64,000 bases of DNA from Dromaius novaehollandiae (lineage: Eukaryota > Chordata > Aves > Casuariiformes > Dromaiidae), in contig NC_088102.1 of the NCBI RefSeq assembly GCF_036370855.1, positions 72,487,601 to 72,551,600 on the forward strand, in the 5' to 3' direction. How positions within the stretch are numbered: position 1 is the first letter of the stretch; each line of letters begins with the position of its first letter. A program made the position numbers and the translations under genes. Below are positions 1 through 64,000 of the stretch, one piece after another. The notes beneath the pieces are model-generated. The model was given only the letters and a program-made list of their open reading frames with translations. It was not told where the DNA came from and did no database searches.

Positions 1-123
1 GCTGCCCTGGCAGCGAGGCCTGCGATTCTGCCTATATATTGCCCTCCCCATAGCGGGGGCCTCTGGTGGCCCAGGAGGCAAGCAGGAGCTGGGGACCGCA
101 GCATTGGGCAGGAGGTGTTTGGG
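1..123 (+). promoter_or_regulatory. Core promoter and 5' UTR of SRCR gene A
   Basis: A TATA box (tatatatt) lies at 33-40, about 85 bases before the chosen ATG at 124. The same core occurs before genes C, E, F and G. The inverted CCAAT box and the GATA motifs seen upstream of those genes would fall just outside the window here. At the place where gene C has an upstream ATG (C 18214), gene A reads ATT. Confidence 0.7.
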
Positions 124-3100
124 ATGGCCACCATCAGCCAGCTCCTTGCCAGCGCACTGGGACTGCTGCTGTGCGTGCAGCTCTGCAGGGGTGAGTGCCT
201 GCGGGCTCCCCGGGGCTGGAGCTGCCTGCCCTCACGCTGAGAGTGGGAGGCAGTCCTGGGGTTGGGGAGGCCACCGTGGAGCTGGGGTGGCCATCATGGG
301 TCTGTGCGTGACCTGCTGGGTGGGCTTCTCAGAGGCACCAGTGGAGGCACACCACCTGGGCAGCCCCCAGGGGCCCACGGTGCCTGCACTGTGCTGGGGA
401 CAGGGTTTTTGCAGTGGGGCCGAACACTGAGCACATGTGGCAGGACATGTCCTCTGCTGTGTTCACCTTGCATTGGGTGCTGGACATTCAGGGTCTGGAT
501 ATGGCCCTACCTTTCTTCACACCTGGTGTCCTGCAGTGCACCCAAGGCTTTTCCACCCACACAGCCATATGCCAGGGTCCAAAAGCCAGGCCCGCAGTGG
601 GGAGTGGAGGCCATCAGGGCAGGGAACAGCTGTGGGACAGAGCTCCCTGGCCAGCCTGGCAGGGCATGCTACACCAGACAACACTGACACCATGCTGGGA
701 CTCCATGTCCTCCTTTATGGTCCCACATGGGCACCCACAGGCACTGGGGAGCTGCGACTGGTTGACGGAGGCAGCCGCTGCGCTGGCCGGGTGGAGGTGA
801 AGCACGAGGGCCAGTGGGGCACCGTGTGCAGCTATGACTTCCTCTGGGATGTCCGTGGGGCCTCCGTGGTCTGCAGGCAGCTGGGATGTGGCACCGTGGC
901 AAGGACTTCCCCATACATGCCGTTCGGGGCAGGTGCTGGCCGGATTTGGCTGCAACCTTTTCTATGTCGTGGCACTGAGACAGCACTCCACCACTGTCCC
1001 CACTACGGCTGGGGCCAGCACTACTGTGGCCATGACACAGATGTTGGGGTGACGTGCTCAGGTGAGGGATCAGGATACTCTGCCGGGGAGCAGACCCTTG
1101 GCTGCGTGCAGTTGGGAGATGGCATGGCTATGCACAGGGCCTCCCCACTGGGGCCTGCCCAGGCACAGATGGGGTACAAGAGTAGAGCTGGAGTGCAGCA
1201 CCCTCATGCCCTGAGGGCACCTCTAATACAGATGCTGTGGAGCTCAGGCTGGTGAATGGAGGTGGTCCCTGTGCAGGCAGAGTGGAGGTGAAGCTGCGGG
1301 GCCAGTGGGGAACGGTGGCAGATGACGTATGGGACATGGAGGATGCCGAGGTGGTGTGTCAGCAGCTGGGCTGTGGCTCGGCCAAAAGCGCCCATGACTC
1401 GACCCGCTTTGGGAGAGGGTCTGGACCTATTCAACTGGCTCTTGTGGACTGTCGTGGGGATGAGTCTGCACTCTGGGAATGCACTGTCCCGGGATGGGGG
1501 CCATACCCTGGCCGCCATGACTGGGATGTTGGTGTGGTCTGCCAAGGTAAGAGCCATGGGGTCCCTCCAGGCTGCCTCGCACTCAGGCCCCGCTATGCCA
1601 GCACCAGGATTATGGGGGCAACCCACCTGCAAGCCCCCAGCGTGTTCCACAGACCCCCAAGAGACCCCAGACTCTCTCCTCCGGCAGGGTTTGTGCGGCT
1701 GGTCGGCGGGGACGGCGCCTGCTTGGGCCGCGTGGAGGTCAGGCAGGGCCGAGGCTGGGTCACCCTCTGCAAGGCCCACGTGGACCTCAACACCGCCCAC
1801 GTCATCTGCAAGGAGCTGGGTTGCGGAGCAGCTCTGGCCATCACTGGGGCAGCACGCTTTGGGGCAGGAGCCGGGCCCATCTGGGACGGGGGCTTTGAGT
1901 GTGCAGGCAACGAATCCCTCCTGTCTGCCTGCGCCCGCAGGCTGCCCCATGGCCAGGGTTGCACGCACAACAGCGGCGCTGGCGTCATCTGCTCCCGTAA
2001 GAGAGCAGGGCGTGGGGCAGAAGCTGCAGCGGGAGGCGCGGGGAGACGGGCAGCAGGGACAGGGGTGCCCAGGGCAGGGACAGGGTAGGGAGGCTGTGGG
2101 CTGGCTTGTGGCAGCCCCCAGGGGTGCGGGAAGGCAGCGGGGTGTGGGAGGCAGAGGGCTGCCATGCCTGCATGCCCCCACCATTGCAGAGCAGGGGACA
2201 TGAGGCCTTCATCTCCAGCACCCTTTTCTCCCTCCCAGCCTACACGGGCTTCAGGCTGGTGAACGGCAGCACAGAGTGCACAGGGCGGGTGGAGCTGGAG
2301 GCACGCGGCACCTGGGGCTCCCTCTGCGATGCCGGCTGGGACATGCCCGATGCCCAGGTGCTCTGCCACCACCTCGGCTGCGGCTTTGCCGCCTCCATGC
2401 CCCGTGGAGGGTATTTTGGGACAGGGAGCGGCCCGCTGTGGCAGGACACATTTCACTGCAGCGGGACCGAGTCCCACCTGGGAGAGTGCCCTGCCATGGC
2501 GCTGGGGATCCCTGCCTGCTCGCCGGACCACGCTGCTGCAGTCAATTGCTCAGGTGCGTGTGGGGCAGGTGGTGCCAGCCACAAGGGCTTCCTGGGGGGA
2601 GGGGACCCAGCACCCCAAAAAGGAAGGGTACCCCACTCCCCCTACTGCCACCAGGAGCTGTGGGGCACAGGGCCCATCTGGGGAAGCAGGGCCATGTCAG
2701 GGCAGGAGGAGGGCTGAGCCCAGGCATAGGGCAGCAGGCACATGGGCAGGACGAGGGCAGTGGGGCCATGCTGTCCCCCAGCATCCTGTGGGACTCCTTG
2801 GCACCCCACGGTCCCCACAGAGCCTCAGGACATCTCCCCTCTGTGCGGGGACAGGTGGCACTGAACCCCTGCGGCTGGTGGACGGGGAGAGCCGCTGTGA
2901 CGGGCGCCTGGAGGTGGCCCTACGTGGGGCCTGGGGCCGAGTCCTGGCACAGCAGTGGGATGCCAGCAGTGCCAGCGTGGTGTGCCGGCAGCTCCGGTGC
3001 GGCACGGTGCAGAAGGCCTATGCTGCCCCAGTGCTGGGGCCAGGCTCGAGCCCCCTGGGGCTAAGCGGGCTCCGGTGTGTGGGCACGGAGGCTCGCCTGG

Positions 3101-6068
3101 CCCAGTGCAACTCCACGCTGCCCAGCGCTGTGCCGCCGGACCATGCCGAGGAAGCGGCAGTTGTGTGCTCGGGTGAGTGTGCCGGGAAGGGCCCCGGAAC
3201 ACTGTGGGGGCCCGAGCAGCTGCCCCAACCCAAGCTGTCTCTGGCTGCAGGGAGCCAGCGCGTGCGGCTGGTGAGTGGCCCTGGGCGCTGTGCTGGGAGA
3301 GTGGAGGTCTACGTGCAGGGGACCTGGAGCCGCGTCTGCGAGGACACCTGGGACCTGTGGGATGCCGCTGTCGTCTGCCACCAGTTGGGCTGCGGCGAGG
3401 TCCTGGCAGTGCCCGGCTCGGCCCGCTACGGCCGGGGCTCGGGGCCAGTGTGGCTGGGTGCTGGCGCCTGCTCCGGGGCCGAGGCGACACTCTGGGAATG
3501 CCCAGCCCCGGCACCAGCCCCAGCCCTGGCCCCGGGGCAGCGTGGCTGTAAGGAGGGTGCTGGTGCGGCAGCCATCTGCTCAGGTCAGCACCGCGCTCCA
3601 CCAGGGCCAGGGCCAGCGGGGCTGTGGGACCGGTTGTGGCATCAGCCCTCCCGACCGGCCTCCCTGCCCACCTCCCCACACCCTGGGCAGTCCGGGGAGT
3701 GAGACGGCACCTTCGCCCCACTGCCCTGCCGTGTCCACTCCTTAGGATGCTTCTCATGGTGACCCGGGGAGGTGGGCGGAGTGGCCGGGACAGCAGGGGT
3801 GTCGCCCAGCCCCGCCTGAGCTGTGCCTACGCCCCCATGCTACCCCCTTGCAGAGCTCACAGCCCTGCGGCTGGCAGGCGGCAGCAGCTGCACCGGGCGC
3901 CTGGAGGTCTTCTACAACGGGACGTGGGGCAGTGTGTGCGCCAACGGCACCAGCCCTGCCACAGCCGCTGTGGTGTGCCAGCAGCTGGGCTGTGGGGCTG
4001 GGGGCCGGCTGTCACCTACACCCACAACCACACAGGGCTCAGGCCCCGCGTGGCTGGCCTGGGTACAGTGCGAGCTGGGGGCCGACTCCCTCTGGCACTG
4101 CCCCTCGGCACCCTGGCAGCTGCAGCCCTGTGACTCCCCTGGGGACACCCACATCTTGTGCGACGGGGAGCCTGGAGGTACCAGAGCAACTCCCACATCA
4201 GCCACGGCAACCAGCTGTCCAGATGGCACATCCTGCACAGGTAGCTCTGCCTGCACAGGGCAGCGCGGTGGCCCCAGGGATCCTCCAGCTCGGGGTGGTG
4301 CAGCCTCTCTGTCCCGCCAGCCACTCCCCTGCATCCCGCTGTGCGTCCACAGTGATGCAGCATGGGACATGGCCAGACTCCCTCCAGCCGTGCAGCTCGT
4401 GTCGGTGTCGTCGCAGGTGCTCACAGGACCCACACGGCAGGGGCTGGATCCATGCCAGTGCCCACCATGCTCTGTATCGTCCTGGGCACCCTGCTCTGCC
4501 TGGCCCTGGGGACCCTCGCTGTGCAGGCATGGCGTGCCATGGCTCAGCACAGAGGTGGGTTGTGCCGGTGGTCTCTGGGGCTGAAGCTACTAGGACGAGG
4601 AGTCAGGGCAGAGCCAGTCAGGGCTGGGGGCTGCTGATGGCTCTGGGGACTGCCTGGCCATGGGGCAGCCTGGCTGCACAGGCTGGGGGCAGGCGTGGCA
4701 GTGGAAGCCAGGAGGCCAGTGCTGAGCGAAGGCAGGACCCGGCGCAGCACAGAGGCCAGGCAGGGGCACCAGAGCTGCTCGGAGGATGGGGCAGAGCAGT
4801 GGGGCTGTGCCACAGGGTTATCAAGGTCACAGCTGGTGACCCCCACCATCCCATGTGCTGCTCCCACAGCCTGGGGTTATGGCTGCCCTTGCTTTCCAGG
4901 CCCTGGCAGAGCCACGGACGCAATCTCTGAGGCTGTCTATGAGGAGCTCGACTACACTCTGATGCCGGAGTACCAGGAGGTGCCCAGTGGCTCAGGTGCA
5001 TGCACCCTGACTCCCGTGCTCAGGCCAGCCCAGCCCGGTGCCTCTTCCTGGGGAGGGAGGTCTCTGCACTGAGACCCCCACGCACCCATTGCTGCAGCAG
5101 CCGGGCTGAGAGCCCGGCCACGTGCTGACCATGGGAAGCTGCAGAGCAGGGCTGTATCCTGACCCCTCACAGTCCCCGCTGTGTGGCGAGGCTGTCCTGC
5201 CCAGGGTGCTGGCCAGCCTTTGAGGCTGGGAAGCCTCCCCTAATGCCCCATCGCGCAGGCTCGCCTTCAGATGGCTCAGTGACAAAGCTCTCGTATTACA
5301 CCAGTGACAGCGTGGAGGCCAGCAGCCCCACGACAGCAGCAAGTACAGGGCTGGGGTGCAGAGCCGCAGCCCTCGCGCCGCAGCCGGTGCCAGCAGGGGA
5401 CTCACATCGTGCCTGGGCAGCATGGCCACGTGGCGCTCAGTTATTTTCTGGGCCGGCACTCAAAGCTGGGGCCGCACCTCCTGGCTGCTGACTCCATCCG
5501 AGAGCTGGCATCCCAATGCAGCTGGCCCCCATGTCGGCACCCGCAGCTCCATGGCCAGTGGGGGCTGGCACTATACGACCCCTGCCCTGGAACTTCATTT
5601 CACTGCCCTGTCTGTCGCAGACACCCCTGCACTGCCCAGACACGACCCCTTGGACGGGTACGACGATGCCACGGCCGTACTGCACCTGGGAGAGGTCGCT
5701 GCTCCGGGGCCGAGCGAAAGCGATGGAGATGTCTCCGAGGTGGCAGCACTGGGAGGTAAGAGGTGCCGCAGCCCACACAGCAGCACTGCCCTTCCCAGCG
5801 CTGTGCCATCCCGCTGGGAGAGGCGGCTCCCCCGTGCTCTACCACGGTGGTGGGCAGTGCCTGGGCACAGGGGGAGCCCTGGCCCTGGCCTGGCAGCCGG
5901 GGGATGAAACGGCCCCTAGAGGCACCAGCCATGCTGTCCCCAGTGCGGAGTCCATCCTCGCTGAGCCACTTGGATCTGCCGGGAGCTGCGACAGATGCAC
6001 CAGCCTCAGCACCCCGGGATGCGGGCTATGACGATGTTGGTGCCAGCGGCCCCGGGACATTGCTGTGA
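124..6068 (+). CDS. SRCR gene A: seven-domain WC1/CD163-like membrane receptor
   Basis: This is a predicted 980-residue type I receptor. Exons: signal peptide 124-190; SRCR1 741-1061; SRCR2 1232-1546; SRCR3 1688-1996; SRCR4 2239-2553; SRCR5 2855-3172; SRCR6 3251-3583; SRCR7 plus stalk 3854-4240; transmembrane 4417-4554; tail exons 4900-4995, 5259-5342, 5621-5755 and 5944-6068. All junctions are GT-AG and phase 1, and all exons are open. The membrane helix lies near residues 801-823. The tail has YEEL (Tyr848) followed by DYTL (Tyr853), then YDDA (Tyr908) and YDDV (Tyr968). One exon per domain and eight cysteines in most domains mark group B SRCR. By family knowledge this would be a gamma-delta T-cell co-receptor or scavenger receptor; the ligand is unknown. 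SRCR2 and SRCR5 lack cysteines 2 and 7. Near twin of gene G. Confidence 0.85.
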
Positions 6069-6327: not shown

Positions 6328-6329
6328 AA

Positions 6330-7659: not shown

Positions 7660-9074
7660 AGAGCACCTTTGCCCCACTGCCTCGAGGTGTCCGCTCCTTG
7701 GGGTGCTTCTCTTAGTGCCCCAGGGAGGTGGGCGGAGTGGCCAGGACAGTGGGGGTGTCTGCCCACGCCCGCCTGAGCCGTGCACCTGCACCATGCTGCC
7801 CCCTTGCAGAGCTCACAGTCCTGCAGCTGGCGGGCGGCAGCAGCTGCACCGAGCGCCTGGAGGTCTTCCACAACGGGACGTGGGGCAGCGTGTGCGCCAA
7901 CGTCACCAGCCTCGCCACAGCTGCTGTGGTGTGCCGGCAGTGGGGCTGAAGGGCCACAGGCCGGCTGGCATCTGCCCCCGCAGGCACACAGGGCTTGGGC
8001 CCCCGCATGGCTGGCCTGGGTGCAGTGTGGGCTGGGGACCGACTCCCTCTGGCACTGCCCCTCGGCACCCTGGCACCTGCAGCCCTGCGACTCCCTCGGG
8101 GATATTCACACCATGTGTGATGGGGAGCCTGGCGGCACCAGAGGGACTCCCACATCAGCCATGGCAACCAGCCGCCCAGATGGCACAGACGGCATAGGTA
8201 CCTCTTCCCGCGCAGAGCAGCACGGTGGCCCCAGGGACCCTCCAGCTCCGACCAGCACAGCCCAGTGGAGGAGGAGCAGCTCTGGCAAGGAGATCCCAGC
8301 TGCCCGGGCACTGATACCCCTCGGCCTCATGCAGGGGTTGGCCCCCGGGCACAGGGGTGCCCTCCTTGGCCTCCCTGTCCCTCCTGCCACTCCTCTGCAC
8401 CCCCCGTGCATCCACAGTGATGCAGCATGGGACAGGGTCCCCAGACTCCCTCCAGCTCTGCCGCATGTTGGTGTCGTCGCAGGTGCCCACAGGAGCCCCA
8501 CAGCGGGTGCTGGGGCCATGCCAGTGCCCGTCATCTTCTGCATCATCCTGGGGACCCTACTCCGCCTGGCCCTGGGGGCCCTCGCCGTGCAGGCAAGGCG
8601 CGCCATGGCTCGGCACAGAGGTAGGTCATGTCGGGGGTCTCTGGGGCTGAAGCTACCAGGAGGAGGCGCCAGGGCAGAGGCTGTCTGGGCTGGGGGCTGC
8701 TGATGGTTCCTGGGACTGCCTGGCCACGGGGCGGCCCAGCTGCACAGGCTGTAGGTGGGTGTGGCAGTAGAGGCCAGGAGGCCAGTGCCGAGCAGGGGCA
8801 GGACCCAGGGCAGCACGAGGGTCAGGCAGGGGTGCCAGAGCCACTCAGAGGATGGGGCAGAGCAGTGGAGCTGGGCCACAGGGTTATTGCGGGCACAGCT
8901 GGTGACCCCCACCATCCCACATTCTGTGCCCACGGCCTGGGGTTACGGCTGCCCTTGCTTTCTAGGCCCTGGCAGAGCCACGGATGCAATCTCTGAGGCC
9001 GTCTATGAGGAGCTCGACTACACCCTGACACTGGAGTACCAGGAGGTGCCCAGTGTCTCAGGTGCATGCACCCT

Positions 9075-9354
9075 GGGACAGGAGCTTCAAGTGTTCAGGC
9101 AACGAATCTCTCCTGTCTGCCTGCACCCACAGACTGCCCCATGGCCAGGGCCGCACACTCAGCACCGATGCCAGTGTTGTCTGCTCTCATAAGAGCACGG
9201 AGCACGGGGAAAAGGCTGCAGAGGGAGGCACTGGGAGACGGGCAGTGGGGACAGGGGTGCCCTGGGCAGGGACGGGGCATGGAGGCTGTGGGCTGGCTTG
9301 TGGCACCCCCCAGGGGTGTGGGGAGGCAGAGGGATGCGGGAGGCAGAGGGCTGC
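9075..9354 (+). repeat. SRCR3 half-exon plus intron patched into a tail intron of module B
   Basis: Between tail exons 1 and 2 lies the second half of an SRCR3 exon (about 9081-9190, with the GNESLLSAC motif) followed by its downstream intron. Both sides then resume gene C-like tail-intron sequence (compare 23186-23210). The donor after the fragment reads AT instead of GT, as in gene F. The same patch is in module H at about 60866-61145. Confidence 0.75.
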
Positions 9355-13048: not shown

Positions 13049-13260
13049 TGACCTTTCGACAAGCACCACACACCACTGTGCTACTGGGAGCTATGGAGAT
13101 GGGAAAGACAATGACAAGGAGGAAGATCACCGTGGAGTGGGCAGGAGCAGTCCTTCATACACAGTTTGACTATGTTTTCTACCTCAACTGGAAAGAAATC
13201 AGCCCCACTACAGCAGGGAGTGCAGCACACTTGATTTCCAAGCTCTGTCATTGCCCCTAC
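13049..13260 (+). pseudogene. NLRP-like NACHT exon remnant, copy 1
   Basis: The plus strand encodes a piece resembling the start of an NLRP-family NACHT domain: TTVLLG, a damaged P-loop (GAMEMGKT), then FDYVFYLNWKEIS and a HLISKLC stretch. Family knowledge: NLRP3-like proteins have GxxGxGKT followed by RFDYVFYINCRE. Here the second P-loop glycine is lost and the upstream part seen in copy 2 (40050) is missing. No Walker B or leucine-rich repeats are seen nearby. It is a remnant of a sensor gene carried along with the spacer. Confidence 0.65.
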
Positions 13261-18213: not shown

Positions 18214-24281
<6,068 letters not shown>

Positions 24282-40000: not shown

Positions 40001-40275
40001 TGTAAGCCACACACATGCAGCCACAGGCAACAAGCAAGCCAACGCTGCTGTTACTATGGCACGGCTGTTTCAACCTCATGAAGAAGGACAAGCGCCACAC
40101 ACCACTGTGCTGCTGGGAGCTGCAGGGATGGGAAAGACAATGACAAGGAGGAAGATCACCGTGGAGTGGGCAGGAGCAGTCCTTTATACACAGTTTGACT
40201 ATGTTTTCTACCTCAACTGGAAAGAAATCAGCCCCACTACAGCAGGGGGTGCAGCACACTTGATTTCCAAGCTCT
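40001..40275 (+). pseudogene. NLRP-like NACHT exon remnant, copy 2
   Basis: This is the better preserved of two copies. The plus strand encodes ARLFQPHEEGQAPHTT, then VLLGAAGMGKT (a complete P-loop, GxxGxGKT), a RKITVEWAG stretch, FDYVFYLNWKEIS and AHLISKLCHCP. This order (LF-P-EE, P-loop, DYVFY, LISK) is that of the NACHT start in NLRP3-like proteins. The cysteine of the usual INCRE motif is tryptophan here, and no Walker B or downstream domain is recognised before sequence similarity is lost. It is a gene fragment, not a working sensor. Confidence 0.7.
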
Positions 40276-44702: not shown

Positions 44703-47700
44703 ATGGCCACCACCAGCCAGCTCCTTGTCAGAGTGCTGGGGCTGCTGCTGTGCGTGCAGCTCTGCAGGGGTGAGTGCCTGTGGGCTCCCCGGGGCTGGAG
44801 CTGCCTGCCCTCTGCAAGGCCCACGTGGACCTCAACACCGCTCATGTCATCTGCAAGGAGCTGGGCTGTGGAGCAGCTCTGGCCATCATTGGGGCGGCAC
44901 GCTTTGGGGCAGGAGCCGTGCCCATCTGGGATGGGGGCTTTGAGTGTGCAGGCAACGAATCCCTCCTGTCTGCCTGCGCCCGCAGGCTGCCCCATGGCCA
45001 GGGCTGCACCAATGCCAGTGATGCCGGCATCATCTGCTCCCATAAGAGCACGGGGTGCAAGGCAGAGGTTGCAGCAGGGGGTGCGGGGAGAAGGGCAGCA
45101 GAGACAGGGGTGCCCTGGTCAGGGATGTGGCAGGGAGGCTGCAGGCTGGCTTGTGGCAGTCCCCAGGGGAGCGGGGAGGCAGCAGGGTGTGGGGAGGCAG
45201 AGGGCTGCCATGCCTGAGTACTCCCACCTTTGTAGAGGCACGGGGCACAGAGCCGTCGTCTCCAGCACCCTTTCTCCCTCCCAGCCTACACGGGCTTCAG
45301 GCTGGTGAACAGCAGCACAGAGTGCGCAGGGCAGGTGGAGCTGGAGGCACGCGGCACCTGGGGCTCCCTCTGCGATGCCAGCTGGGATATGCCCGATGCC
45401 CAGGTGCTCTGCCACCACCTCAGCTGCGGCTTTGCCGCCTCCGTGCCCCACAGAGGGTATTTTGGGACAGGGAGCGACCCGCTGTGGCAGGACACGTTTC
45501 ACTGCAGCGGGACCAAGTCCCACCTGGGAGAGTGCCCTGCCACGGTGCTGGGGACCCCCGCCTGCTCACCAGGCCGCACTGCCGCAGTCAATTGCTCAGG
45601 TGCGTGCAGGGCAGGTGGTGTCAGACAGGAGGGCCTGCTGTGGGGAGGGGACCTGGCACCCCAAAAGGAGGTGTGGCCCTCCCTCTCACTGCCACCAGGA
45701 GCTGTGGGGCACAGGGCCCGTCTGGGGAAGCAGGGCCATGTCAGGGCAGGAGGAGGGCTGAGCCCAGGCACAGGGCAGCAGGCACATGGGCAGGAGGAGG
45801 GCAGTGGGGCTGTGCTGTCCCCCAGCATCCCATGGGGCTCCTTGGCACCCTGCGGTCCCCACAGCGCCTCAGGACATCTCGCCTCTCTGTGGGGCCAGGT
45901 GGCACTGAACCCCTGAGGCTGGTGGATGGGGAGAGCCGCTGTGATGGCCGCCTGGAGGTGGCCCTGGGTGGGGCCTGGGGCCAAGTCCTGGCTCAGCAGT
46001 GGGACGCCAGCAGCACCAGTGTGGTGTGCCAGCAGCTCCGGTGTGGCACAGTGCAGAAGGCCTACACCGCCCCAGTGCCGGGGCCAGGCTCGAGCCCCCT
46101 GGGGCTGAGTGGGCTCCGGTGCACGGGCACGGAGGCTCGCCTGGCCCAGTGCAACTCCACGCTGCCCAGCACCACACTGCTGGCCACGTCAAGCAAGCGG
46201 TGTCTGTGTGCTCAGGTGAGTGTGCCGGGAAGGGCCCCAGGGCGCCATGGGGGACCGAGCGGCTGCCCCATCCCGGGCTGTCTCTGGCTGCAGGGAGCCA
46301 GCAGGTGCGGCTGGCGAGCGGCCCTGGGCGCTGTGCTGGGAGAGTGGAGGTCTACGTGCAGGGGGCCTGGATCCATGTCTGCGAGGACGCCTGGGACCTC
46401 TGGGACGCCACCGTCGACTGCCACCAGCTGGGCTGTGGAGAGGCCCTGGCAGCGCCCGGCTTGGCCCACTATGCCCGGGGCTCGGTGCCAGTGTGGCTGG
46501 GCGCCGGTGGCTGCTCCGGGGCCAAGGTGACATTCTGGGACTGCCCGGCCCCAGCCCCGGACCCAGGGCATCACAGCTGCAAGCAGGGCGCTGACGTGGC
46601 AGCCTTCTGCTCAGGTCAGCGCCATGGTCCACCGTGTCCAGGGGCAGCAGGGCTGTGGGACCGGCCGTAGCACCAGCCCTCCCCACGGACCTCCCTGACT
46701 AGCTCCCCACACCCTGGGCAGTCCTGGGGGGTGAGATGGCACCTTTGCCCCACTGCCTCGAGGTGTCCGCTCCTTGGGGTGCTTCTCTTAGTTCCAGGGG
46801 AGGTGGGTGGAGTGGCCAGGACAGTGGGGGTGTCTGCCCAGCTCCAGCTGAGCCATGCACCCCCACCATGCTGCCCCCTTGCAGAGCTCACAGTCCTGCG
46901 GCTGGTGGGCAGCAGCAGCTGCACCGGGTGCCTGGAGGTCTTCTACAATGGGACATGAGGCAGTGTGTGCGCCAATGGCACCAGCCCGGCCACAGCCGCC
47001 GTGGTGTGCCAGCAGCTGGGCTATGGGGCCACGGGCAGCTGGCATCTGCCCTCACAACCACACAGGGCTCAGGCCCCGCGTGGCTGGCCTGGGTGCAGTG
47101 CGAGCTGGGGGCCAACTCCCTCTGGCACTGCCCCTCAGCACCCTGGCAGCTGCAGCCCTGCGACTCCCCTGGCGATACCCACATCACGTGCGACGGGGAC
47201 CCTGGAGGCACCAGAGTGACTCCCACGCCAGCCATGGCAACTGGATGCCCAGACGGCGCAGCCTGCACAGGTAGCTCTGCCTGCGCAGGGCAGCGTGGTG
47301 GCCCCAGGGATCCTCCAGCTGGCGCAGTCCAGTGGAGGGGGAGCAGCTCTGGCAAGGAGACCCCAGCTGCCGAGCACTGCCCTGAGCTGCATGCAGTCCC
47401 CCCAGGCACAGGGGTGCCCTCCTTGGCCTCCCTGTCCCTCAAGCTGCTCCCCTGCATCCTCTTGTGGGTCCACAGTGATGCAGGATGGGACAGGGTTCCC
47501 GACATCCTTCCAGCTCTGCCGTGTTGGTGTCCTCGCAGGTGCCCACAGGAGCCCCGCGGGGGGTGCTGGGGCCATGCCGGTGCCCACCATCCTCTGCATT
47601 GTCCTGGGCACTCTGCTCTGCCTGGCCCTGGGGGCCCTCGCCGTGCAGGCATGGCGTGCCATGGCTCGGCACAGAGGTGGGTCGCACCAGGGTTCTCCGG

Positions 47701-49194
47701 GGCTGAATCTACCAGGACGAGGCGCCAGGGCAGAGCCAGTCAGGGCTGGGGCTGCTGATGGCTCCCGGGACTGCCCGGCCATGGGGCGGCCCAGCTGCAC
47801 AGGCTGGGGGCAGGTGCAGCGTTGGAGGCCAGGAGGCCAGTGCCAAGCGACGGCAGGACCTGGCGCGGCACGAGGGCCAGGCAGGGGCACCAGAGCCACT
47901 CGGTGGATGGGGCACAGCAGTGGAGCTGGGCCACAGGGATATCGGGGGCACAGCTGGTGACCCCCACCATCCCATGTGCTGTGCTCATGGCCTGGGGTTA
48001 TGGCTGCCCTTGCTTTCCAGGCCCTGGCAGAGCTGGGGACACAATCTCTGAGGCCGTCTATGAGGAGCTTGACTACACTCTGACGCCAGAGTACCAGGAG
48101 GTGCCCAGTGGCTCAGGTGTGTGCACCCTGACTCCCGTGGGAAGAGGCCAGCCCAGCCCGGCGCCTCTTCCAGGGGAGGGAGGTCTCTGCGCTGAGGCCC
48201 CCACGCACCCGCTGCAGCAGCTGTGCTGGGAGCCCAGCCATGTGCTGGCCACGGGGAGCTGCAGTGCAGGGCTGTATCCTGGCCCCTCACAGTCCACACT
48301 GTGCGGTGAGGCTGTCCTGCCCAGGGTGCTGGCCAGGCCGTGGGACTGGGCAGCCTCTCCTAACGCCCCATCCTCCAGGCTCTGTGTCGGAGGGCACAGT
48401 GACGAAGCTGCCGTATTACACCAGCGACAGCGTGGAGGTCAGCAGCCCCGCGACAGCAGCAGGTATGGGGCCGGAGTGCAGGGCCGTGCTGCAACGTGCC
48501 CAGAAGTGCAGCCTTCGCGCTGCAGCCGGTGCCAGCCTGGGGCCTCACATGGTGCCTGTGCAGCATGGCCATGTGGCCCTTGGTTATTTTCTGGGCCGAC
48601 ACTCGTGGCTAGGGACGAGCCTCTGGGCTGCTGGCTCCATCCGAGAGCTGGCAGCCCCATGCCGTAGGCCCCAATGTCGGCACCCCTAGCTCTGTGGCCG
48701 GTGGGGGCTGGCACAACATGACCCCTGCCCCAGCCTTCATTTCACTGCCCCGTCTGTCGCAGACACCCCTGCCCTGCCCAGGCACGACCCCCCAGATGGG
48801 TATGATGATGCCACAGCTGTCCTGCACCCGGGACAGGCTGCTGCTCTGGGGCCAAGTGACAGAGATGTCTCTGAAGTGGCCACGCTGGGAGGTAAGAGGT
48901 GCCGCAGCCTGCACAGCAGCACTGCTGTTCCCAGTGCCATGATGTCCTGCCAGGAGAGACAGCTCCCATGTGCTGTGCCGCAGCAGTGGGCAGTGCCTAG
49001 GCATAGGGGGAGCGGGGGGATGAAATGGCCCCTACAGACACCGGCCATGCTGTCCGCAGCGGGGAGCTGGTCCTCGCTGAGCCACCCAAAGCAGTGAGGA
49101 GCCACGACTGACGGTCAGGCTTCGGTTCCCAGGGACGCGAGCTACGATGACGTGGGCATCATCAGCCCCGGGACGTTGCTGTGAGCATGGCAGG
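44703..49194 (+). pseudogene. Gene F: decayed SRCR receptor lacking SRCR1-2 and half of SRCR3
   Basis: Parts: signal peptide 44703-44769; SRCR3 remnant about 44809-45041; SRCR4 45285-45599; SRCR5 45899-46215; SRCR6 46294-46614; SRCR7 46885-47270; transmembrane 47539-47676; tail 48021-48116, 48379-48462, 48763-48891 and 49060-49194. A deletion joins intron 1 to the middle of SRCR3 at a shared ccctc (44808-44812), removing the SRCR3 acceptor. The SRCR3 donor is AT. SRCR5 is one base short near 46170-46190. SRCR7 has TGA at 46956-46958 in place of the conserved Trp and is one base short near 47035. The last exon stops early at 49095-49097. Tail exons 1-3 are intact with YEEL and YDDA. Skipping SRCR3, 5 and 7 would leave a short open receptor with SRCR4 and 6; that is inference. 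Confidence 0.8.
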
Positions 49195-49421: not shown

Positions 49422-49429
49422 AAAATTAA

Positions 49430-51917: not shown

Positions 51918-54900
51918 ATGGCCACTACCAGCCAGCTCCTTGCCAGCGCACTGGGACTGCTGCTGTGCGTGCAGCTCTGCAGGGGTGAGTGCCTGCGGGC
52001 TCCCCGGGGCTGGAGCTGCCTGCCCTCATGCCGAGAGTGGGAGGCAGCCCTGGGGTTGGGGAGGCCACCGTGGGGCTGGGGTGGCCCCCATGGGTCTGTG
52101 CGTGACCTTCTGGGTGGGCTTCTCAGAGGCACCAGTGGAGGCACACCACCTGGGCAGCCCACAGGGGCCCACGGTGCCTGCACTGTGCTGGGGACAGGGT
52201 TTTTGCAGTGGGGCCAAACACTGAGCACATGTGGCAGGACATGTCCTCTGCTGTGTTCACCTTGCATCGGGTGCTGGACATTCAAGGTCTGGATATGGCC
52301 CTACCTTTCTTCACACCTGGTGTCCTGCAGTGCACCCAAGGCTTTTCCACCCACACAGCCATATGCCAGGGTCCAAAAGCCAGGCCCGCAGTGGGGAGTG
52401 GAGGCCATCAGGGCAGGGAACAGCTGTGGGACAGAGCTCCCTGGCCAGCCTGGCAGGGCATGCTACACCAGACAACACTGACACCATGCTGGGACTCCAT
52501 GTCCTCCTTTATGGTCCCACATGGGCACCCACAGGCACCGGGGAGCTGCGACTGGTTAACGGAGGCAGCCGCTGCGCCGGTCGGGTGGAGGTGAAGCACG
52601 AGGGCCAGTGGGGCACCGTGTGCAGCTATGACTTCCTCTGGGATGTCCGTGGGGCCTCCGTGGTCTGCAGGCAGCTGGGATGTGGCACCGTGGCAAGGAC
52701 TTCCCCATACATGCCGTTCGGGGCAGGGGCTGGCCGGATTTGGCTGCAACCTTTTCTATGTCGTGGCACTGAGACAGCACTCCACCACTGTCCCCACTAC
52801 GGCTGGGGCCAGCACTACTGTGGCCATGACACAGATGTTGGGGTGACGTGCTCAGGTGAGGGATCAGGATACTCTGCCAGGGAGCAGACCCTTGGCTGTG
52901 CGCAGTTTGGAGATGGCATGGCTATGCCCAGGGCCTCCCCACTGGGGCCTGCCCAGGCACAGATGGGGTACAAGAGTAGAGCTGGAGTGCAGCACCCTCA
53001 TGCCCTGAGGGCACCTCTAATACAGATGCTGTGGAGCTCAGGCTGGTGAATGGAGGTGGTCCCTGTGCAGGCAGAGTGGAGGTGAAGCTGCGGGGCCAGT
53101 GGGGAACGGTGGCAGATGACATATGGGACATGGAGGATGCCGAGGTGGTGTGTCAGCAGCTGGGCTGTGGCTCGGCCAAAAGCGCCCATGACTCGACCCA
53201 CTTTGGGAGAGGGTCTGGACCTATTCAACTGGCTCTTGTGGACTGTCGCGGGGATGAGTCTGCACTCTGGGAATGCACTGTCCCGGGATGGGGGCCATAC
53301 CCTGGCCGCCATGACTGGGATGTTGGTGTGGTCTGCCAAGGTAAGAGCCATGGGGTCCCTCCAGGCTGCCTCGCACTCAGGCCCCACTATGCCAGCACTA
53401 GGGTTATGGGGGCAGCCCCCCTGCAAGCCCCCAGCGTGTTCCACAGACCCCCAAGAGACCCCAGACTCTCTCCTCCGGCAGGGTTTGTGCGGCTGGTCGG
53501 CGGGGACGGCGCCTGCTCGGGCCGCGTGGAGGTCAGGCAGGGCCGAGGCTGGGCCACCCTCTGCAAGGCCCACGTGGACCTCAACACCGCCCACGTCATC
53601 TGCAAGGAGCTGGGTTGCGGAGCAGCTCTGGCCATCACTGGGGCGGCACGCTTTGGGGCAGGAGCTGGGCCCATCTGGGACGGGGGCTTTGAGTGTGCAG
53701 GCAATGAATCCCTCCTGTCTGCCTGTGCCCGCAGGCTGCCCCACAGCCAGGGCTGCACACACAGCAGTGACGCTGGCGTCATCTGCTCTCGTAAGAGCGT
53801 GGGGTGTGGGGCAGAGGCTGCAGCGGGGGGCATGGGGAGACGAGCAGCGGGGACAGGAGTGCCCAGGGCAGGGACGGGGCAGGGAGGCTGCGGGCTGGCT
53901 TGTGGCAGCCCCCAGGGGTGAGGGAAGGCAGCAGGGTGTGGGAGGCAGAGGGCTGCCATGCCTGCACGCCCCCACCATTGCAGAGCACGGGACATGAGGC
54001 CTTCATCTCCAGCACCCTTTTCTCCCTCCCAGCCTACACAGGCTTCAGGCTGGTGAACGGCAGCACAGAGTGCACAGGGAGGGTGGAGCTGGAGGCACGC
54101 GGCACCTGGGGCTCCCTCTGCGATGCCGGCTGGGACATGCCCGATGCCCAGGTGCTCTGCCACCACCTCGGCTGCGGCTTTGCCGCCTCCGTGCCCCACA
54201 GAGGGTGTTTTGGGACAGGGAGCAGCCCGCTGTGGCAGGACACGTTTCACTGCAGTGGGACTGAGTCCCACCTGGGAGAGTGCCCTGCCACGGTGCTGGG
54301 GACCCCCGCCTGCTCGCCGGACCACGCTGCTGCAGTCAATTGCTCAGGTGCGTGTGGGGCAGGTGGTGCCAGCCACAAGGGCTTCCTGGGGGGAGGGGAC
54401 CCAGCACCCCAAAAAGGAAGGGTACCCCACTCCCCCTACTGCCACCAGGAGCTGTGGGGCACAGGGCCCATCTGGGGAAGCAGCGCCATGTCAGGGCAGG
54501 AGGAGGGCTGAGCCCAGGCATAGGGCAGCAGGCACATGGGCAGGAGGAGGGCAGTGGGGCCATGCTGTCCCCCAGCATCCTGTGGGACTCCTTGGCACCC
54601 CGCGGTCCCCAAAGAGCCTCAGGACATTTCCCCTCTGTGTGGGGACAGGTGGCACGGAACCCCTGCGGCTGGTGGATGGGGAGAGCCGCTGTGACGGACA
54701 CCTGGAGGTGGCCCTGGGTGGGGCCTGGGGCCGAGTCCTGGCACAGCAGTGGGATGCCAGCAGTGCAAGCGTGGTGTGCCGGCAGCTCCGGTGCGGCACG
54801 GTGCAGAAGGCCTATGCTGCCCCAGTGCTGGGGCCAGGCTCGAGCCCCCTGGGGCTGAGCGGGCTCCGGTGTGTGGGCACGGAGGCTCGCCTGGCCCAGT

Positions 54901-57856
54901 GCAACTCCACGCTGCCCAGCGCCGTGCCGCCGGACCATGCCGAGGAAGCGGCAGTTGTGTGCTCGGGTGAGTGTGCCAGGAAGGGCCCCGGGGCACTGTG
55001 GGGGCCCGAGCAGCTGCCCCATCCCGGGCTGTCTCTGGCTGCAGGGAGCCAGCGCGTCCGGCTGGTGAGTGGCCCTGGGCGCTGTGCTGGGAGAGTGGAG
55101 GTCTACGTGCAGGGGACCTGGAGCCGCGTCTGCGAGGACACCTGGGACCTGTGGGACGCCGCTGTCGTCTGCCACCAGTTGGGCTGCGGCGAGGTCCTGG
55201 CAGTGCCCGGCTCGGCCCGCTACGGCCGGGGCTCGGGGCCAGTGTGGCTGGGTGCTGGCGCCTGCTCCGGGGCCGAGGCGACACTCTGGGACTGCCCAGC
55301 CCCGGCACCAGCCCCAGCCCTGGCCCCGGGGCAGCGTGGCTGTAAGAAGGGTGCTGGTGCGGCAGCCATCTGCTCAGGTCAGCACCGCGCTCCACCAGGG
55401 CCAGGGCCAGAGGGGCTGTGGGACCGGTTGTGGCATCAGCCCTCCCGACCGGCCTCCCTGCCCACCTCCCCACACCCTGGGCAGTCCGGGGAGTGAGACG
55501 GCACCTTCGCCCCACTGCCCTGCCGTGTCCACTCCTTAGGATGCTTCTCATGGTGACCCGGGGAGGTGGGCGGAGTGGCCGGGACAGCAGGGGTGTTGCC
55601 CAGCCCCGCCTGAGCTGTGCCTACGCCCCCATGCTACCCCCTTGCAGAGCTCACAGCCCTGCGGCTGGCAGGCGGCAGCAGCTGCACCGGGCGCCTGGAG
55701 GTCTTCTACAATGGGACGTGGGGCAGTGTGTGCGCCAACGGCACCAGCCCTGCCACAGCCGCTGTGGTGTGCCAGCAGCTGGGCTGTGGGGCTGGGGGCC
55801 GGCTGTCACCTACACCCACAACCACACAGGGCTCAGGCCCCGCGTGGCTGGCCTGGGTGCAGTGCGAGCTGGGGGCCGACTCCCTCTGGCACTGCCCCTC
55901 GGCACCCTGGCAGCTGCAGCCCTGCGCCTCCCCTGGGGACACCCACATCTTGTGCGACGGGGAGCCTGGAGGTACCAGAGCAACTCCCACATCAGCCACA
56001 GCAACCAGCTGTCCAGATGGCACAGCCTGCACAGGTAGCTCTGCCTGCACAGGGCAGCGCGGTGGCCCCAGGGATCCTCCAGCTCGGGGTGGTGCAGCCT
56101 CTCTGTCCCACCAGCCACTCCCCTGCATCCCGCTGTGCGTCCACAGTGATGCAGCATGGGATATGGCCAGACTCCCTCCAGCCGTGCAGCTCGTGTCGGT
56201 GTCGTCGCAGGTGCCCACAGGACCCACGCGGCAGGGGCTGGATCCATGCCAGTGCCCACCATGCTCTGCATCGTCCTGGGCACCCTGCTCTGCCTGGCCC
56301 TGGGGACCCTCGCTGTGCAGGCATGGCGTGCCATGGCTCAGCACAGAGGTGGGTTGTGCCGGTGGTCTCCGGGGCTGAAGCTACTAGGACGAGGCGTCAG
56401 GGCAGAGCCAGTCAGGGCTGGGGGCTGCTGATGGCCCTGGGGACTGCCTGGCCATGGGGCAGCCTGGCTGCACAGGCTGGGGGCAGGCGTGGCAGTGGAA
56501 GCCAGGAGGCCAGTGCTGAGCGAAGGCAGGACCCGGCGCAGCACAGAGGCCAGGCAGGGGCACCAGAGCTGCTCGGAGGATGGGGCAGAGCAGTGGGGCT
56601 GTGCCACAGGGTTATCAAGGTCACAGCTGGTGACCCCCACCATCCCATGTGCTGCTCCCACAGCCTGGGGTTATGGCTGCCCTTGCTTTCCAGGCCCTGG
56701 CAGAGCCATGGACGCAATCTCTGAGGCTGTCTATGAGGAGCTCGACTACACTCTGATGCCGGAGTACCAGGAGGTGCCCAGTGGCTCAGGTGCATGCACC
56801 CTGACTCCCGTGCTCAGGCCAGCCCAGCCCGGTGCCTCTTCCTGGGGAGGGAGGTCTCTGCACTGAGACCCTCACGCACCCATTGCTGCAGCAGCCGGGC
56901 TGAGAGCCCGGCCACGTGCTGACCATGGGAAGCTGCAGAGCAGGGCTGTATCCTGACCCCTCACAGTCCCCGCTGTGTGGCGAGGCTGTCCTGCCCAGGG
57001 TGCTGGCCAGCCTTTGAGGCTGGGAAGCCTCCCCTAATGCCCCATCGCTCAGACTCACCTTCAGATGGCTCAGTGACAAAGCTCTCATATTACACCAGTG
57101 ACAGCGTGGAGGCCAGCAGCCCCACGACAGCAGCAAGTACAGGGCTGGGGTGCAGAGCCGCAGCCCTCGCGCCGCAGCCGGTGCCAGCAGGGGACTCACA
57201 TCGTGCCTGGGCAGCATGGCCACGTGGCGCTCAGTTATTTTCTGGGCCGGCACTCAAAGCTGGGGCCGCGCCTCCTGGCTGCTGACTCCATCCGAGAGCT
57301 GGCATCCCAATGCAGCTGGCCCCCATGTCGGCACCCCCAGCTCCGTGGCCAGTGGGGGCTGGCACTACACGACCCCTGCCCTGGAACTTCATTTCACTGC
57401 CCTGTCTGTCGCAGACACCCCTGCACTGCCCAGACACGACCCCTTGAATGGGTACGACGATGCCACGGCCGTGCTGCACCTGGGAGAGGTTGCTGCTCCG
57501 GGGCTGAGCGAAAGCGATGGAGATGTCTCCGAGGTGGCAGCACTGGGAGGTAAGAGGTGCCGCAGCCCACACAGCAGCACTGCCCTTCCCAGCGCTGTGC
57601 CATCCCGCTGGGAGAGGCGGCTCCCCCATGCTCTACCACGGTGGTGGGCAGTGCCTGGGCACAGGGGGAGCCCTGGCCCTGGCCTGGCAGCCGGGGGATG
57701 AAACGGCCCCTAGAGGCACCAGCCATGCTGTCCCCAGTGCGGAGTCCATCCTCGCTGAGCCACTTGGATCTGCCGGGAGCCGGGACAGATGCACCGGCCT
57801 CAGCGCCCCAGTATGCGGGCTATGACGATGTTGGTGCCAGCGGCCCCGGGACATAG
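51918..57856 (+). CDS. SRCR gene G: seven-domain WC1/CD163-like receptor, twin of gene A
   Basis: Exons lie at the gene A positions plus 51,794: signal peptide 51918-51984; SRCR1 52535-52855; SRCR2 53026-53340; SRCR3 53482-53790; SRCR4 54033-54347; SRCR5 54649-54966; SRCR6 55045-55377; SRCR7 plus stalk 55648-56034; transmembrane 56211-56348; tail 56694-56789, 57053-57136, 57415-57549 and 57738-57856. All are open. The stop is TAG at 57854-57856, so the protein ends GPGT and is two residues shorter than A (978). YEELDYTL, GYDDATAV and GYDDV are kept; the residue before GYDDA is N instead of D. The constant offset across exons and introns shows that A and G were copied recently as part of a much larger block. 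Confidence 0.85.
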
Positions 57857-58121: not shown

Positions 58122-58123
58122 AA

Positions 58124-59451: not shown

Positions 59452-60865
59452 AGAGCACCTTTGCCCCACTGCCTCGAGGTGTCCGCTCCTTGGGGTGCTT
59501 CTCTTAGTGCCCCAGGGAGGTGGGCGGAGTGGCCAGGACAGTGGCGGTGTCTGCCCACGCCCGCCTGAGCCGTGCACCTGCACCATGCTGCCCCCTTGCA
59601 GAGCTCACAGTCCTGCAGCTGGCGGGCGGCAGCAGCTGCACCGAGCGCCTGGAGGTCTTCCACAACGGGACGTGGGGCAGCGTGTGCGCCAACATCACCA
59701 GCCTCGCCACAGCTGCCGTGGTGTGCCGGCAGTGGGGCTGAAGGGCCACAGGCCGGCTGGCATCTGCCCCCGCAGGCACACAGGGCTTGGGCCCCGCATG
59801 GCTGGCCTGGGTGCAGTGTGGGCTGGGGACCGACTCCCTCTGGCACTGCCCCTCGGCACCCTGGCAGCTGCAGCCCTGCGACTCCCTCGGGGATATTCAC
59901 ACCATGTGTGATGGGGAGCCTGGCGGCACCAGAGGGACTCCCACATCAGCCATGGCAACCAGCCGCCCAGATGGCACAGACGGCATAGGTACCTCTTCCC
60001 GCGCAGAGCAGCACGGTGGCCCCAGGGACCCTCCAGCTCCAACCAGCACAGCCCAGTGGAGGGGGAGCAGCTCTGGCAAGGAGATCCCAGCTGCCCGGGC
60101 ACTGATACCCCTCGGCCTCATGCAGGGGTTGGCCCCCAGGCACAGGGGTGCCCTCCTTGGCCTCCCTGTCCCTCCTGCCACTCCTCTGCACCCCCCGTGC
60201 ATCCACAGTGATGCAGCATGGGACAGGGTCCTCAGCCTCCCTCCAGCTCTGCCGCGTGTTGGTGTTGTCGCAGGTGCCCACAGGAGCCCCACAGCGGGTG
60301 CTGGGGCCATGCCAGTGCCCGTCATCTTCTGCATCATCCTGGGGACCCTACTCCGCCTGGCCCTGGGGGCCCTCGCCGTGCAGCCAAGGCGCACCATGGC
60401 TCGGCACAGAGGTAGGTCATGTCGGGGGTCTCTGGGGCTGAAGCTACCAGGATGAGGCACCAGGGCAGAGCCAGTCAGGGCTGGGGGCTGCTGATGGTTC
60501 CTGGGACTGCCTGGCCATGGGGCGGCCCAGCTGCACAGGCTGGAGGTGGGTGTGGCAGTAGAGGCCAGGAGGCCAGTGCCGAGCAGGGGCAGGACCCAGG
60601 GCAGCACGAGGGCCAGGCAGGGGTGCCAGAGCCACTCAGAGGATGGGGCAGAGCAGTGGAGCTGGGCCACAGGGTTATCGCGGGCACAGCTGGTGACCCC
60701 CACCATCCCACATTCTGTGCCCACGGCCTGGGGTTACGGCTGCCCTTGCTTTCTAGGCCCTGGCAGAGCCACGGATGCAATCTCTGAGGCCGTCTATGAG
60801 GAGCTCGACTACACCCTGACACCGGAGTACCAGGAGGTGCCCAGTGTCTCAGGTGCATGCACCCT

Positions 60866-61145
60866 GGGACAGGAGCTTCAAGTGTTCAGGCAACGAATCT
60901 CTCCTGTCTGCCTGCACCCACAGACTGCCCCATGGCCAGGGCCGCACACTCAGCACCGATGCCAGTGTTGTCTGCTCTCATAAGAGCACGGAGCACGGGG
61001 AAAAGGCTGCAGAGGGAGGCACTGGGAGACGGGCAGTGGGGACAGGGGTGCCCTGGGCAGGGACGGGGCATGGAGGCTGTGGGCTGGCTTGTGGCACCCC
61101 CCAGGGGTGTGGGGAGGCAGAGGGATGCGGGAGGCAGAGGGCTGC
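60866..61145 (+). repeat. SRCR3 half-exon patch in module H
   Basis: Same patch as at 9075-9354, with the GNESLLSAC motif and an AT donor. Its presence in both blocks shows it formed before the 51.8-kb duplication. Confidence 0.75.
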
Positions 61146-63350: not shown

Positions 63351-63925
63351 ATGTTTGGAGCCTCGGCCCCAAGGTGAGGCCTTTGGGCACACTGCTATAT
63401 CCCGGGGGTGGCTGGGGTGGACAAGGAGCATGTCCTGCTCAGCGTGAGCTCTGTTGCACATAGCCAGTAACTCTCCTGCCGGCCTCACACGGCTCCAGTT
63501 AATTGCTATTGCTGCTGCAGGTCTTTCGCCCGCACTGTCCTACACTGGGATGTCACCACGCACGGCGCTCTGACCACTGTTGCCCTCACCCGCCCCAGAG
63601 CAGCGCTGCACCAGGTCGACATTTGCCATCGCTGGTGGTGCACACTGCCCATGGCAGGGACTGCAGTGGAGCGAGCGCTGCTCTATAGAAAGGGCCAAGC
63701 ATGGGCAGCGCTGCCCAATGCAGCAGTGGTGGAGCAGCTGGCAGGCTTCCTCTCCTCACTGGAGGTTTCCCTTGCTGTAAGGCAGGCCTGCAGCCCAAAC
63801 ACAAGGGCAGGACAATAGTGTGACAATTGGAGATGCCTTGGAGGGAGGCTATGGTCTGCCTTCCTGCCTGCCACCTAGTAAAAGCCCCCATCTGGGAGAG
63901 CAGGGCAGATGCTTTGTCTCCTTGA
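63349..63925. repeat. 3'-flank block after module H2
   Basis: Closest to the block after gene F (49430-50050), including the catagccagtaactctcctg wording and the accacctagtaaaagccccc segment, rather than to the block after B2. No gene seen. Confidence 0.6.
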
Positions 63926-64000
63926 TTGGGGGCATCATTGGGTACCACTGAAAGCACTCTGGCCCCATCCTCTTCACACACTCCCTTCACATATTTATAC
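63926..64000 (-). mobile_element. CR1 LINE start, cut by window end
   Basis: Reads gggtaccactgaaagcactc and then CR1 minus-strand sequence, as at 25105 and 50025. The window ends inside it. Confidence 0.6.

What the first reader, a model, noticed from the sequence alone, without database searches (positions are those of the whole stretch)
1..64000. Head-to-tail array of WC1/CD163-like receptors in a CR1-bearing genome
Four whole genes, one decayed gene and five fragments lie on one strand. Each whole gene has signal peptide, seven SRCR exons, membrane exon and a tyrosine-motif tail. WC1 is best known as a multigene co-receptor family of gamma-delta T cells in ruminants and pigs; birds are also rich in gamma-delta T cells. 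An array with the same YEEL/YDDV tail in a sauropsid-like genome may be a parallel or ancestral co-receptor system.
Basis: partly seen in the sequence, partly recalled or inferred. Interest (0 to 1): 0.75.

Follow-up and report, generated by a model that had tools for sequence, protein, structure and literature searches.

The report
Bird array of 37 WC1-like receptors
[quoted passage not shown] relatives in chicken were already reported, but this copy number and this shortened domain layout were not seen in the papers searched.

Summary
In detail: four 12-exon genes (signal peptide, seven SRCR exons, membrane exon, three tail exons), one decayed gene and five SRCR fragments, all on +. The window is about one eighth of an array of 37 units, each with signal-peptide, SRCR6, SRCR7 and YEEL exons, over 517 kb. 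Of 16 units read in full, 14 are open to the last stop. Coding sequence is constrained (dN/dS 0.25), and SRCR modules and tails have been exchanged between copies. In a domain tree SRCR3-7 group with the b, c, n, d and e positions of the genome's other CD163/WC1-like genes; b and c also with human CD163, b, c and e with recalled bovine WC1. SRCR1 is unplaced, and no named DMBT1 row was included. The membrane-proximal d' domain is missing. Best reading: WC1/CD163c-alpha-like, ligand-binding signalling receptors, probably of gamma-delta T cells; expression is untested. Herzig et al. 2010 already proposed avian WC1 orthologues and an ancestral multigene state. Not seen in print: the scale, the d'-less layout, the mosaicism and the NLRP relics carried along.

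The parts
124..6062 (+). Whole WC1-like gene A, 12 exons, open frame to stop (949 aa)
18235..24275 (+). Whole WC1-like gene B, 12 exons, open frame (944 aa), GC donor after SRCR1
31946..37950 (+). Whole WC1-like gene C, 12 exons, open frame (943 aa); mosaic of two gene types
51918..57856 (+). Whole WC1-like gene E, 12 exons, open frame (947 aa)
51918..51984 (+). Gene E signal-peptide exon
52535..52855 (+). Gene E SRCR1 exon (N-terminal, class unresolved in the tree)
53026..53340 (+). Gene E SRCR2 exon (groups with first domain read of the C1:87 Mb gene, 93/96; 6 Cys; most high-variability sites of the SRCR exons)
53482..53790 (+). Gene E SRCR3 exon, b type
54033..54347 (+). Gene E SRCR4 exon, c type (clade weak)
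54649..54966 (+). Gene E SRCR5 exon, n position (6 Cys)
55045..55377 (+). Gene E SRCR6 exon, d type
55657..56034 (+). Gene E SRCR7 exon, e type, running into a linker (TSCPDGTACT); no d' exon follows
56211..56348 (+). Gene E transmembrane exon
56694..56789 (+). Gene E tail exon Y1: [15 protein letters not shown]
57415..57549 (+). Gene E tail exon Y2: NGYDDA
57738..57856 (+). Gene E tail exon Y3: GYDDV, stop
44703..48115 (+). Decayed copy: signal-peptide exon, SRCR3 lacking its start, SRCR4, cut SRCR5, SRCR6, frame-broken SRCR7, YEEL exon
26876..27950 (+). Fragment: SRCR4, pieces of SRCR5, most of SRCR6
7821..9190 (+). Two fragments: broken SRCR7 (7821-8124) and 3' part of SRCR3 (9074-9190), with a YEEL exon between them (8965-9057)
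59613..60981 (+). Two fragments laid out like the 7821-9190 relic: broken SRCR7, YEEL exon (60756-60848), SRCR3 piece
13069..13248 (+). Relic of an NLRP-type NACHT exon between genes
40098..40277 (+). Relic of an NLRP-type NACHT exon between genes

Best explanation
The window is part of a lineage-specific tandem array of type I membrane receptors of the WC1/CD163c-alpha-like group of group B SRCR proteins, probably in a bird. Each protein has a signal peptide, two N-terminal SRCR domains, then the b-c-n-d-e cassette, a short linker, one membrane pass and a tail with YEEL and two YDD tyrosine motifs. Shown here: gene structure of 16 units, unit number in the assembly, class of SRCR3-7, coding constraint, exchange of modules among copies. 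Inferred: SRCR domains bind microbial or self surface ligands, and the YEEL tyrosine is phosphorylated by Src-family kinases when the receptor is co-engaged with an antigen receptor, raising the response. The likeliest cell is the gamma-delta T cell. Copies differ modestly, most in SRCR2, SRCR5, SRCR6 and the tail, so the array probably gives dose and a limited set of specificities (four to five types among the 16 read) rather than many sharply different ones. It grew by unequal exchange of units of about 14 kb, many of which also carry a dead NLRP piece.
For: 37 of 37 units hold signal-peptide, SRCR6, SRCR7 and YEEL exons (from; one of the 37 signal-peptide matches is partial). 16 of 16 units read in full have all 12 exons, 14 of 16 open to the last stop. 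dN/dS is 0.25 overall, 0.18-0.35 per exon, over 14 of the 16 genes. Domain tree of 48 rows: e clade 100/99, n clade 100/100, b clade 99/97, c clade 90/69 (weak), d with the genome's two other d domains 90/87. Human CD163 is the top solved relative of the whole ectodomain. YEEL fits the Y-(Q/E)-(D/C/E)-(I/L) motif shared by WC1 and CD163c-alpha-like molecules, and its tyrosine is required for potentiation in WC1 (PMC2906472, passages). WC1 binds bacteria through SRCR domains and is phosphorylated by Src-family kinases (PMC5949365, PMC8356672, passages). In cod a CD163-like SRCR gene marks a T-cell cluster expressing tcrb with putative tcrg and tcrd (PMC9276791, passages).
Against: No expression data. 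No signature of positive selection: pN is below pS in 29 of 29 windows of up to 20 codons over SRCR1-3 among four type representatives. d' is absent: 0 of 377 tblastn hits of three d' queries lie outside known SRCR exons in the 264 kb searched. SRCR1 is unplaced, with best blastp match to a C32 domain; SRCR2 does not group with recalled WC1 domain a; SRCR6 does not group with human CD163-7 and recalled WC1 d, which pair with each other. SRCR5 alone scores slightly higher to a DMBT1 domain (73 bits) than to any single CD163 domain (68 bits). A chicken blood single-cell paper holds none of the words WC1, SRCR, scavenger, CD163, DMBT1, SCART in its main text (PMC10826067). A 20-kb pair of blocks at 99.92% identity leaves part of the copy number open to assembly duplication.
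Confidence: 0.6

Rival explanations
1. The array encodes endocytic scavenger receptors of macrophages or thrombocytes, like CD163A taking up haemoglobin complexes, and the tail tyrosines serve internalisation.
For: Human CD163 is the closest solved relative; chicken uses a CD163-family member, PIT54, for haemoglobin (PMC8081666, passages), and PIT54 also matches.
Against: CD163A tails share no significant identity with WC1/CD163c-alpha-like tails and have YREM (PMC2906472, passages), whereas all 37 units have a YEEL-exon match. A domain in the n position is present. 37 copies are many for one housekeeping ligand (inference).
Confidence: 0.2
2. Mucosal or epithelial pattern-binding proteins of the DMBT1 type.
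For: DMBT paralogues are expanded in Sauropsida (PMC12032555); this genome has other large SRCR clusters on C32 and C6; SRCR1 matches C32 domains best by blastp; SRCR5 alone scores 73 bits to DMBT1 against 68 to the best CD163 domain.
Against: SRCR3-7 group with CD163/WC1-like domains; only SRCR-type Pfam families are found, no CUB or ZP; each gene read has a membrane exon and a tyrosine tail. No named DMBT1 row was in the tree, and the C32 cluster was not identified.
Confidence: 0.04
3. Much of the copy number is an assembly artefact (haplotypes laid in tandem), and the real array is smaller.
For: 72187131-72207130 and 72267001-72287000 differ at 16 of 20,000 positions with no gap; three units recur at a constant offset of 79,870 bases (positions).
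Against: The other long blocks listed (cut-off 97% identity and, for the window, over 4,000 bases) are 97.4-98.1% identical; types differ by up to 11-13% in SRCR1 and SRCR2 exons; neighbouring units are often of different types. Divergent haplotypes of an immune locus could still explain some 2% differences; I raised this rival from 0.12 to 0.15 on rechecking.
Confidence: 0.15

Closest known systems
Chicken WC1/CD163c-alpha hybrid genes (CD163_1, CD163_8 of Herzig et al. 2010, PMC2906472; 'antigen WC1.1-like' genes, PMC12032555)
   Same: N-terminal a-type domain followed by a cassette with c-n-d-e; Y-x-x-(I/L) tail; multigene
   Different: Those end in d'; here d' is absent and two domains precede b. 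Numbers given there: at least 18 CD163-family genes; 6 WC1.1-like (plus 7 in leghorn). Here 37 units in one row
The genome's own WC1-like genes at C5:77.54 Mb and C1:87.04-87.06 Mb
   Same: b, c, n, d, e domains in the same order; the C5:77.54 copy has a membrane exon and YQEI, and its C10 copy also two GYDDA motifs
   Different: They have a further domain after e (d' by position; the two pair at 98/93 in the tree), and one domain before b in the stretch read (the stretches further upstream were not read); the C1 gene has two c-like domains. Per-domain identity to gene E about 48-65% among the best matches listed
Bovine WC1 (13 genes, PMC5949365)
   Same: Group B SRCR multigene array, b-c and d-e pairs, YEEL motif
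   Different: The 11-domain form is a-b-c-d-e-d-b-c-d-e-d' (PMC2906472), without n; PMC12032555 reports no synteny between chicken WC1-like genes and cattle
Mammalian SCART / CD163c-alpha
   Same: Domain n, Y-x-x-(I/L) tail; gamma-delta T-cell expression of SCART2 in mouse and enrichment in WC1+ cells in cattle (PMC2906472)
   Different: At most two genes in non-artiodactyl eutherians; domains m and l

Membership tests
Group B SRCR receptors (CD163/WC1 group) | Tandem SRCR domains with 6-8 cysteines, one exon each | tested here: met
   Pfam SRCR, 7 stretches, E 1e-174; 6 or 8 Cys in 27 of the 28 domains of the four whole genes, 9 in gene E SRCR4; one exon per domain, phase-1 introns
Group B SRCR receptors (CD163/WC1 group) | Domain-by-domain kinship and order b-c ... 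d-e | tested here: met
   c clade weak (90/69), d supported only with the in-genome d domains, WC1 rows recalled
WC1 (artiodactyl) | Cassette without n, ending in d' | tested here: not met
   extra domain between c and d; no d' (0 of 377 d' hits outside known SRCR exons)
WC1 (artiodactyl) | N-terminal domain of class a | tested here: inconclusive
   SRCR2 groups with the C1:87 Mb first domain (93/96); SRCR1 unplaced; recalled WC1 a groups weakly with the C5:77.54 Mb first domain (92/36)
WC1 (artiodactyl) | Tail with YEEL | tested here: met
   37 of 37 units have a match to the YEEL exon; 16 of 16 units read have YEEL
WC1 (artiodactyl) | Multigene array | tested here: met
   37 units, mean spacing 14.2 kb
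WC1 (artiodactyl) | Expression on gamma-delta T cells and co-receptor activity | not testable with these tools
   no RNA or functional data
CD163c-alpha / SCART | Domain n and Y-x-x-(I/L) tail | tested here: inconclusive
   Tail met. SRCR5 forms a 100/100 clade with the two in-genome domains in the n position, but no mammalian n row was in the tree; the letter is by position and Herzig's scheme
CD163A | Nine domains and the YREM tail | tested here: not met
   seven domains, YEEL tail
DMBT1 | SRCR with CUB and ZP domains | tested here: not met
   only SRCR-type families at E up to 0.01 in the gene E protein

The most novel reading that the evidence does not exclude
A bird lineage has built the largest WC1-type receptor repertoire so far described, with a private d'-less layout, in which exchange between tandem copies keeps re-pairing ectodomain types with SRCR7 and signalling tails, and in which some copies (2 of 16 read) have frameshifted tails that keep YEEL but lose both YDD motifs, so that individual gamma-delta T cells can carry combinations of ligand modules and signal strengths. 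Caveat: the clearest ectodomain-tail re-pairing (72212913) also has a changed splice donor after SRCR3, so that copy may be dead; other mosaics (72157230, 72199996, window gene C) have intact models. For this I lowered the probability from 0.3 to 0.25.
Probability: 0.25. Interest if true: 0.7.

Novelty: new variant of a known kind. Interest (0 to 1): 0.45.

Why it matters
[quoted passage not shown] A 37-unit array with clear exon models makes that testable in a bird: which cells express it, whether one cell uses one or many copies, and whether the conserved YEEL tyrosine signals. It also suggests that the receptor can lose its membrane-proximal domain and still be kept under selection in many copies.
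Full report
WHERE IT IS. The window is contig C5:72487601-72551600 (+) of a 1.468-Gb assembly in 271 contigs. C1 is 219.5 Mb and C5 77.9 Mb long. A lysozyme exon on C1 matches pheasant, turkey and hen lysozymes best among 257 matching solved sequences, of which 60 were shown. I take the genome as a bird; the order is not determined, and solved lysozymes are mostly galliform. The six DM-domain matches lie on C35, C8 and C258, so C5 is probably not the Z chromosome.

WHAT IS IN THE WINDOW. A profile built from the window's own SRCR domains finds 44 SRCR stretches on plus and none on minus (list). Gene E was modelled exon by exon: signal peptide 51918-51984, SRCR1 52535-52855, SRCR2 53026-53340, SRCR3 53482-53790, SRCR4 54033-54347, SRCR5 54649-54966, SRCR6 55045-55377, SRCR7 plus linker 55657-56034, membrane exon 56211-56348, tail exons 56694-56789 (YEEL), 57415-57549 (NGYDDA) and 57738-57856 (GYDDV, stop). 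All introns of gene E are phase 1 with GT-AG ends. The same 12 exons were found in 16 of 16 units read in full (4 in the window, 12 in C5:72.05-72.25 Mb). Of these, 14 of 16 stay open to the last stop (941-949 aa). Two (72129332, 72240887) have a frameshift in the second tail exon, which keeps YEEL but loses the YDD motifs; 72212913, counted among the 14, has its SRCR3 donor changed from GT to AT; two use a GC donor after SRCR1. These are models; no transcript was available.

THE ARRAY IS EIGHT TIMES LARGER THAN THE WINDOW. Genome searches with single exons give 37 full-length SRCR7 copies without stops in the array, 37 full-length SRCR6 copies at 86-100% identity (the decayed gene adds one at 80%), 43 YEEL exons, all 43 matches being in this array, and 38 signal-peptide matches, all in the array, one partial. 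Matching positions shows 37 of 37 units with signal peptide, SRCR6, SRCR7 and YEEL in order, from 72089813 to just beyond 72606292, with a mean spacing of 14.2 kb. Six YEEL exons are not assigned to a unit; three of them are the window's decayed gene and its two broken SRCR7 relics. The other 21 units were not read in full; that they are intact outside these four exons is inference.

HOW REAL THE COPY NUMBER IS. Blocks over 4,000 bases and at least 97% identical shared between the window and 72.13-72.19 Mb are 97.5-98.1% identical. That is more than most allelic differences in my judgement, but an immune locus can have divergent haplotypes. 72187131-72207130 and 72267001-72287000 differ at only 16 of 20,000 bases without a gap. 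That pair, part of a run of three units that recurs at a constant offset of 79,870 bases, could be a very recent duplication or an assembly duplicate.

WHICH FAMILY. The best solved relatives of the gene E ectodomain are human CD163 chains, then PIT54, CD5-like and CD6. CD163 domains 5-6 align to window SRCR3-4, and CD163 7-8 to window SRCR6-7. In a maximum-likelihood tree of 48 domains (the bootstrap had not fully settled), SRCR7 sits with e domains including recalled bovine WC1 e (100/99); SRCR5 with the two in-genome domains in the n position (100/100); SRCR3 with b domains of CD163, recalled WC1 and both in-genome genes (99/97); SRCR4 with c domains (90/69, weak); SRCR6 with the two in-genome d domains (90/87), while human CD163-7 and recalled WC1 d pair with each other. 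SRCR2 groups with the first domain read of the C1:87 Mb gene (93/96). SRCR1 is unplaced, and its best blastp matches are C32 domains by a small margin (111 and 110 against 109 bits for human CD163-2). Three of five C32 rows form their own clade and two are unplaced; that cluster was not identified (a C32 domain matches CD163, PIT54, CD5-like, CD6 and DMBT1 chains). SRCR5 alone scores 73 bits to a DMBT1 domain and 68 to the best single CD163 domain. Letters a to e, n and d' follow Herzig et al. 2010. Reservations: the WC1 rows are from memory, and no named DMBT1 or SCART row was in the tree.

WHAT IS MISSING. The in-genome relatives at C5:77.54 Mb (one domain, then b-c-n-d-e and a further domain, membrane exon, YQEI) and C1:87.04-87.06 Mb have a domain after e in the d' position. 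The array has none: of 377 tblastn hits with three d' queries, 0 lie outside the known SRCR exons of the window and C5:72.05-72.25 Mb. A linker resembling the WC1 interdomain piece (recalled) directly follows e and leads to the membrane exon. So this subfamily lacks d', most simply by loss, and has two domains ahead of b.

SELECTION AND EXCHANGE. Over 14 genes dN/dS is 0.25 (0.18 in SRCR1, 0.26 in SRCR2, 0.24 in the YEEL exon, 0.34-0.35 in the membrane and second tail exons). The proteins are therefore constrained. There is no sign of positive selection in 29 windows of SRCR1-3. Variability is highest in the tail, membrane exon, SRCR5, SRCR2 and SRCR6 (tail values inflated by the two frameshifted copies). 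Grouping each exon at 4% divergence shows four to five types and mosaics: 72157230 and window gene C join the front of one type to the back of another, 72199996 carries an SRCR2 of another type, 72212913 pairs the front of one type with the SRCR7 and tail of another (and has the changed donor named above). This comes from direct comparison; no formal recombination test was run.

A HITCH-HIKING NLRP PIECE. Just upstream of the array lies an NLRP-type gene with NACHT, winged-helix and HD2 matches (72077918-72079667). Pieces matching its NACHT exon recur in 25 places in the array, two of them in the window (13069-13248 and 40098-40277; Pfam NACHT over cut-off). The duplicating unit thus appears to have included part of this neighbour.

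HOW IT LIKELY WORKS. In WC1 the SRCR domains bind bacteria, and the receptor, co-engaged with the gamma-delta TCR, is phosphorylated by Src-family kinases and raises the response (PMC5949365 and PMC8356672, passages); the YEEL tyrosine is needed (PMC2906472, passages). The array has a YEEL exon in every unit. [quoted passage not shown] about 0.9 for membership in the WC1/CD163c-alpha-like group). It is not shown: no expression data exist here, and one chicken blood single-cell paper holds none of the words WC1, SRCR, scavenger, CD163, DMBT1 or SCART (PMC10826067).

WHAT IS NEW. Already in print: at least 18 CD163-family genes in chicken, seven with an a-type domain, hybrids with a cassette c-n-d-e-d', Y-x-x-(I/L) tails, and the view that a multigene state is ancestral (PMC2906472, first part of the text and passages); [quoted passage not shown] Not seen in the papers searched: a 37-unit array, a d'-less layout with two leading domains, module and tail exchange, and NLRP hitch-hiking. 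Membership: I place it in the WC1/CD163c-alpha-like group, but it fails the WC1 layout (n present, d' absent), so I do not call it WC1 in the strict sense; that does not lower the claim that it works like WC1.

Noticed in passing
C5:72077918-72079667 (L011); window 13069-13248 and 40098-40277: An NLRP-type gene (NACHT, winged helix, HD2) flanks the array upstream, and 25 truncated matches to its NACHT exon lie inside the array.
   Followed up: partly
C5:77.547, C8:0.254, C9:35.87, C10:30.158 and 30.263, C48:0.505, C86:0.19 Mb (L029, L032): WC1-like e domains equally like the array's (52-53% identity) sit at seven places on six contigs, six of the seven within about 0.1-0.5 Mb of a contig start or end (the C9 length was not seen). 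The two copies read (L029, L032) are 96.6-97.9% identical and have b-c-n-d-e-d' after one domain. This looks like subtelomeric spread.
   Followed up: partly
C6:44593551-44632404: 17 SRCR exons with identical score at roughly 2.0-2.5 kb spacing: a very homogeneous internal repeat of an SRCR gene.
   Followed up: no
C32:1.15-1.445 Mb: A dense cluster of many further SRCR exons on both strands; five of its domains do not group with SRCR3-7 of this family. Its identity was not determined.
   Followed up: no
C5:72187131-72207130 versus 72267001-72287000: 20-kb blocks 99.92% identical without a gap: very recent duplication or assembly duplicate.
   Followed up: partly
window 1-64000: High G+C (0.56-0.69 in 4-kb steps) and 425 ORFs of 85 aa or more on both strands, most of them not exons.
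   Followed up: no
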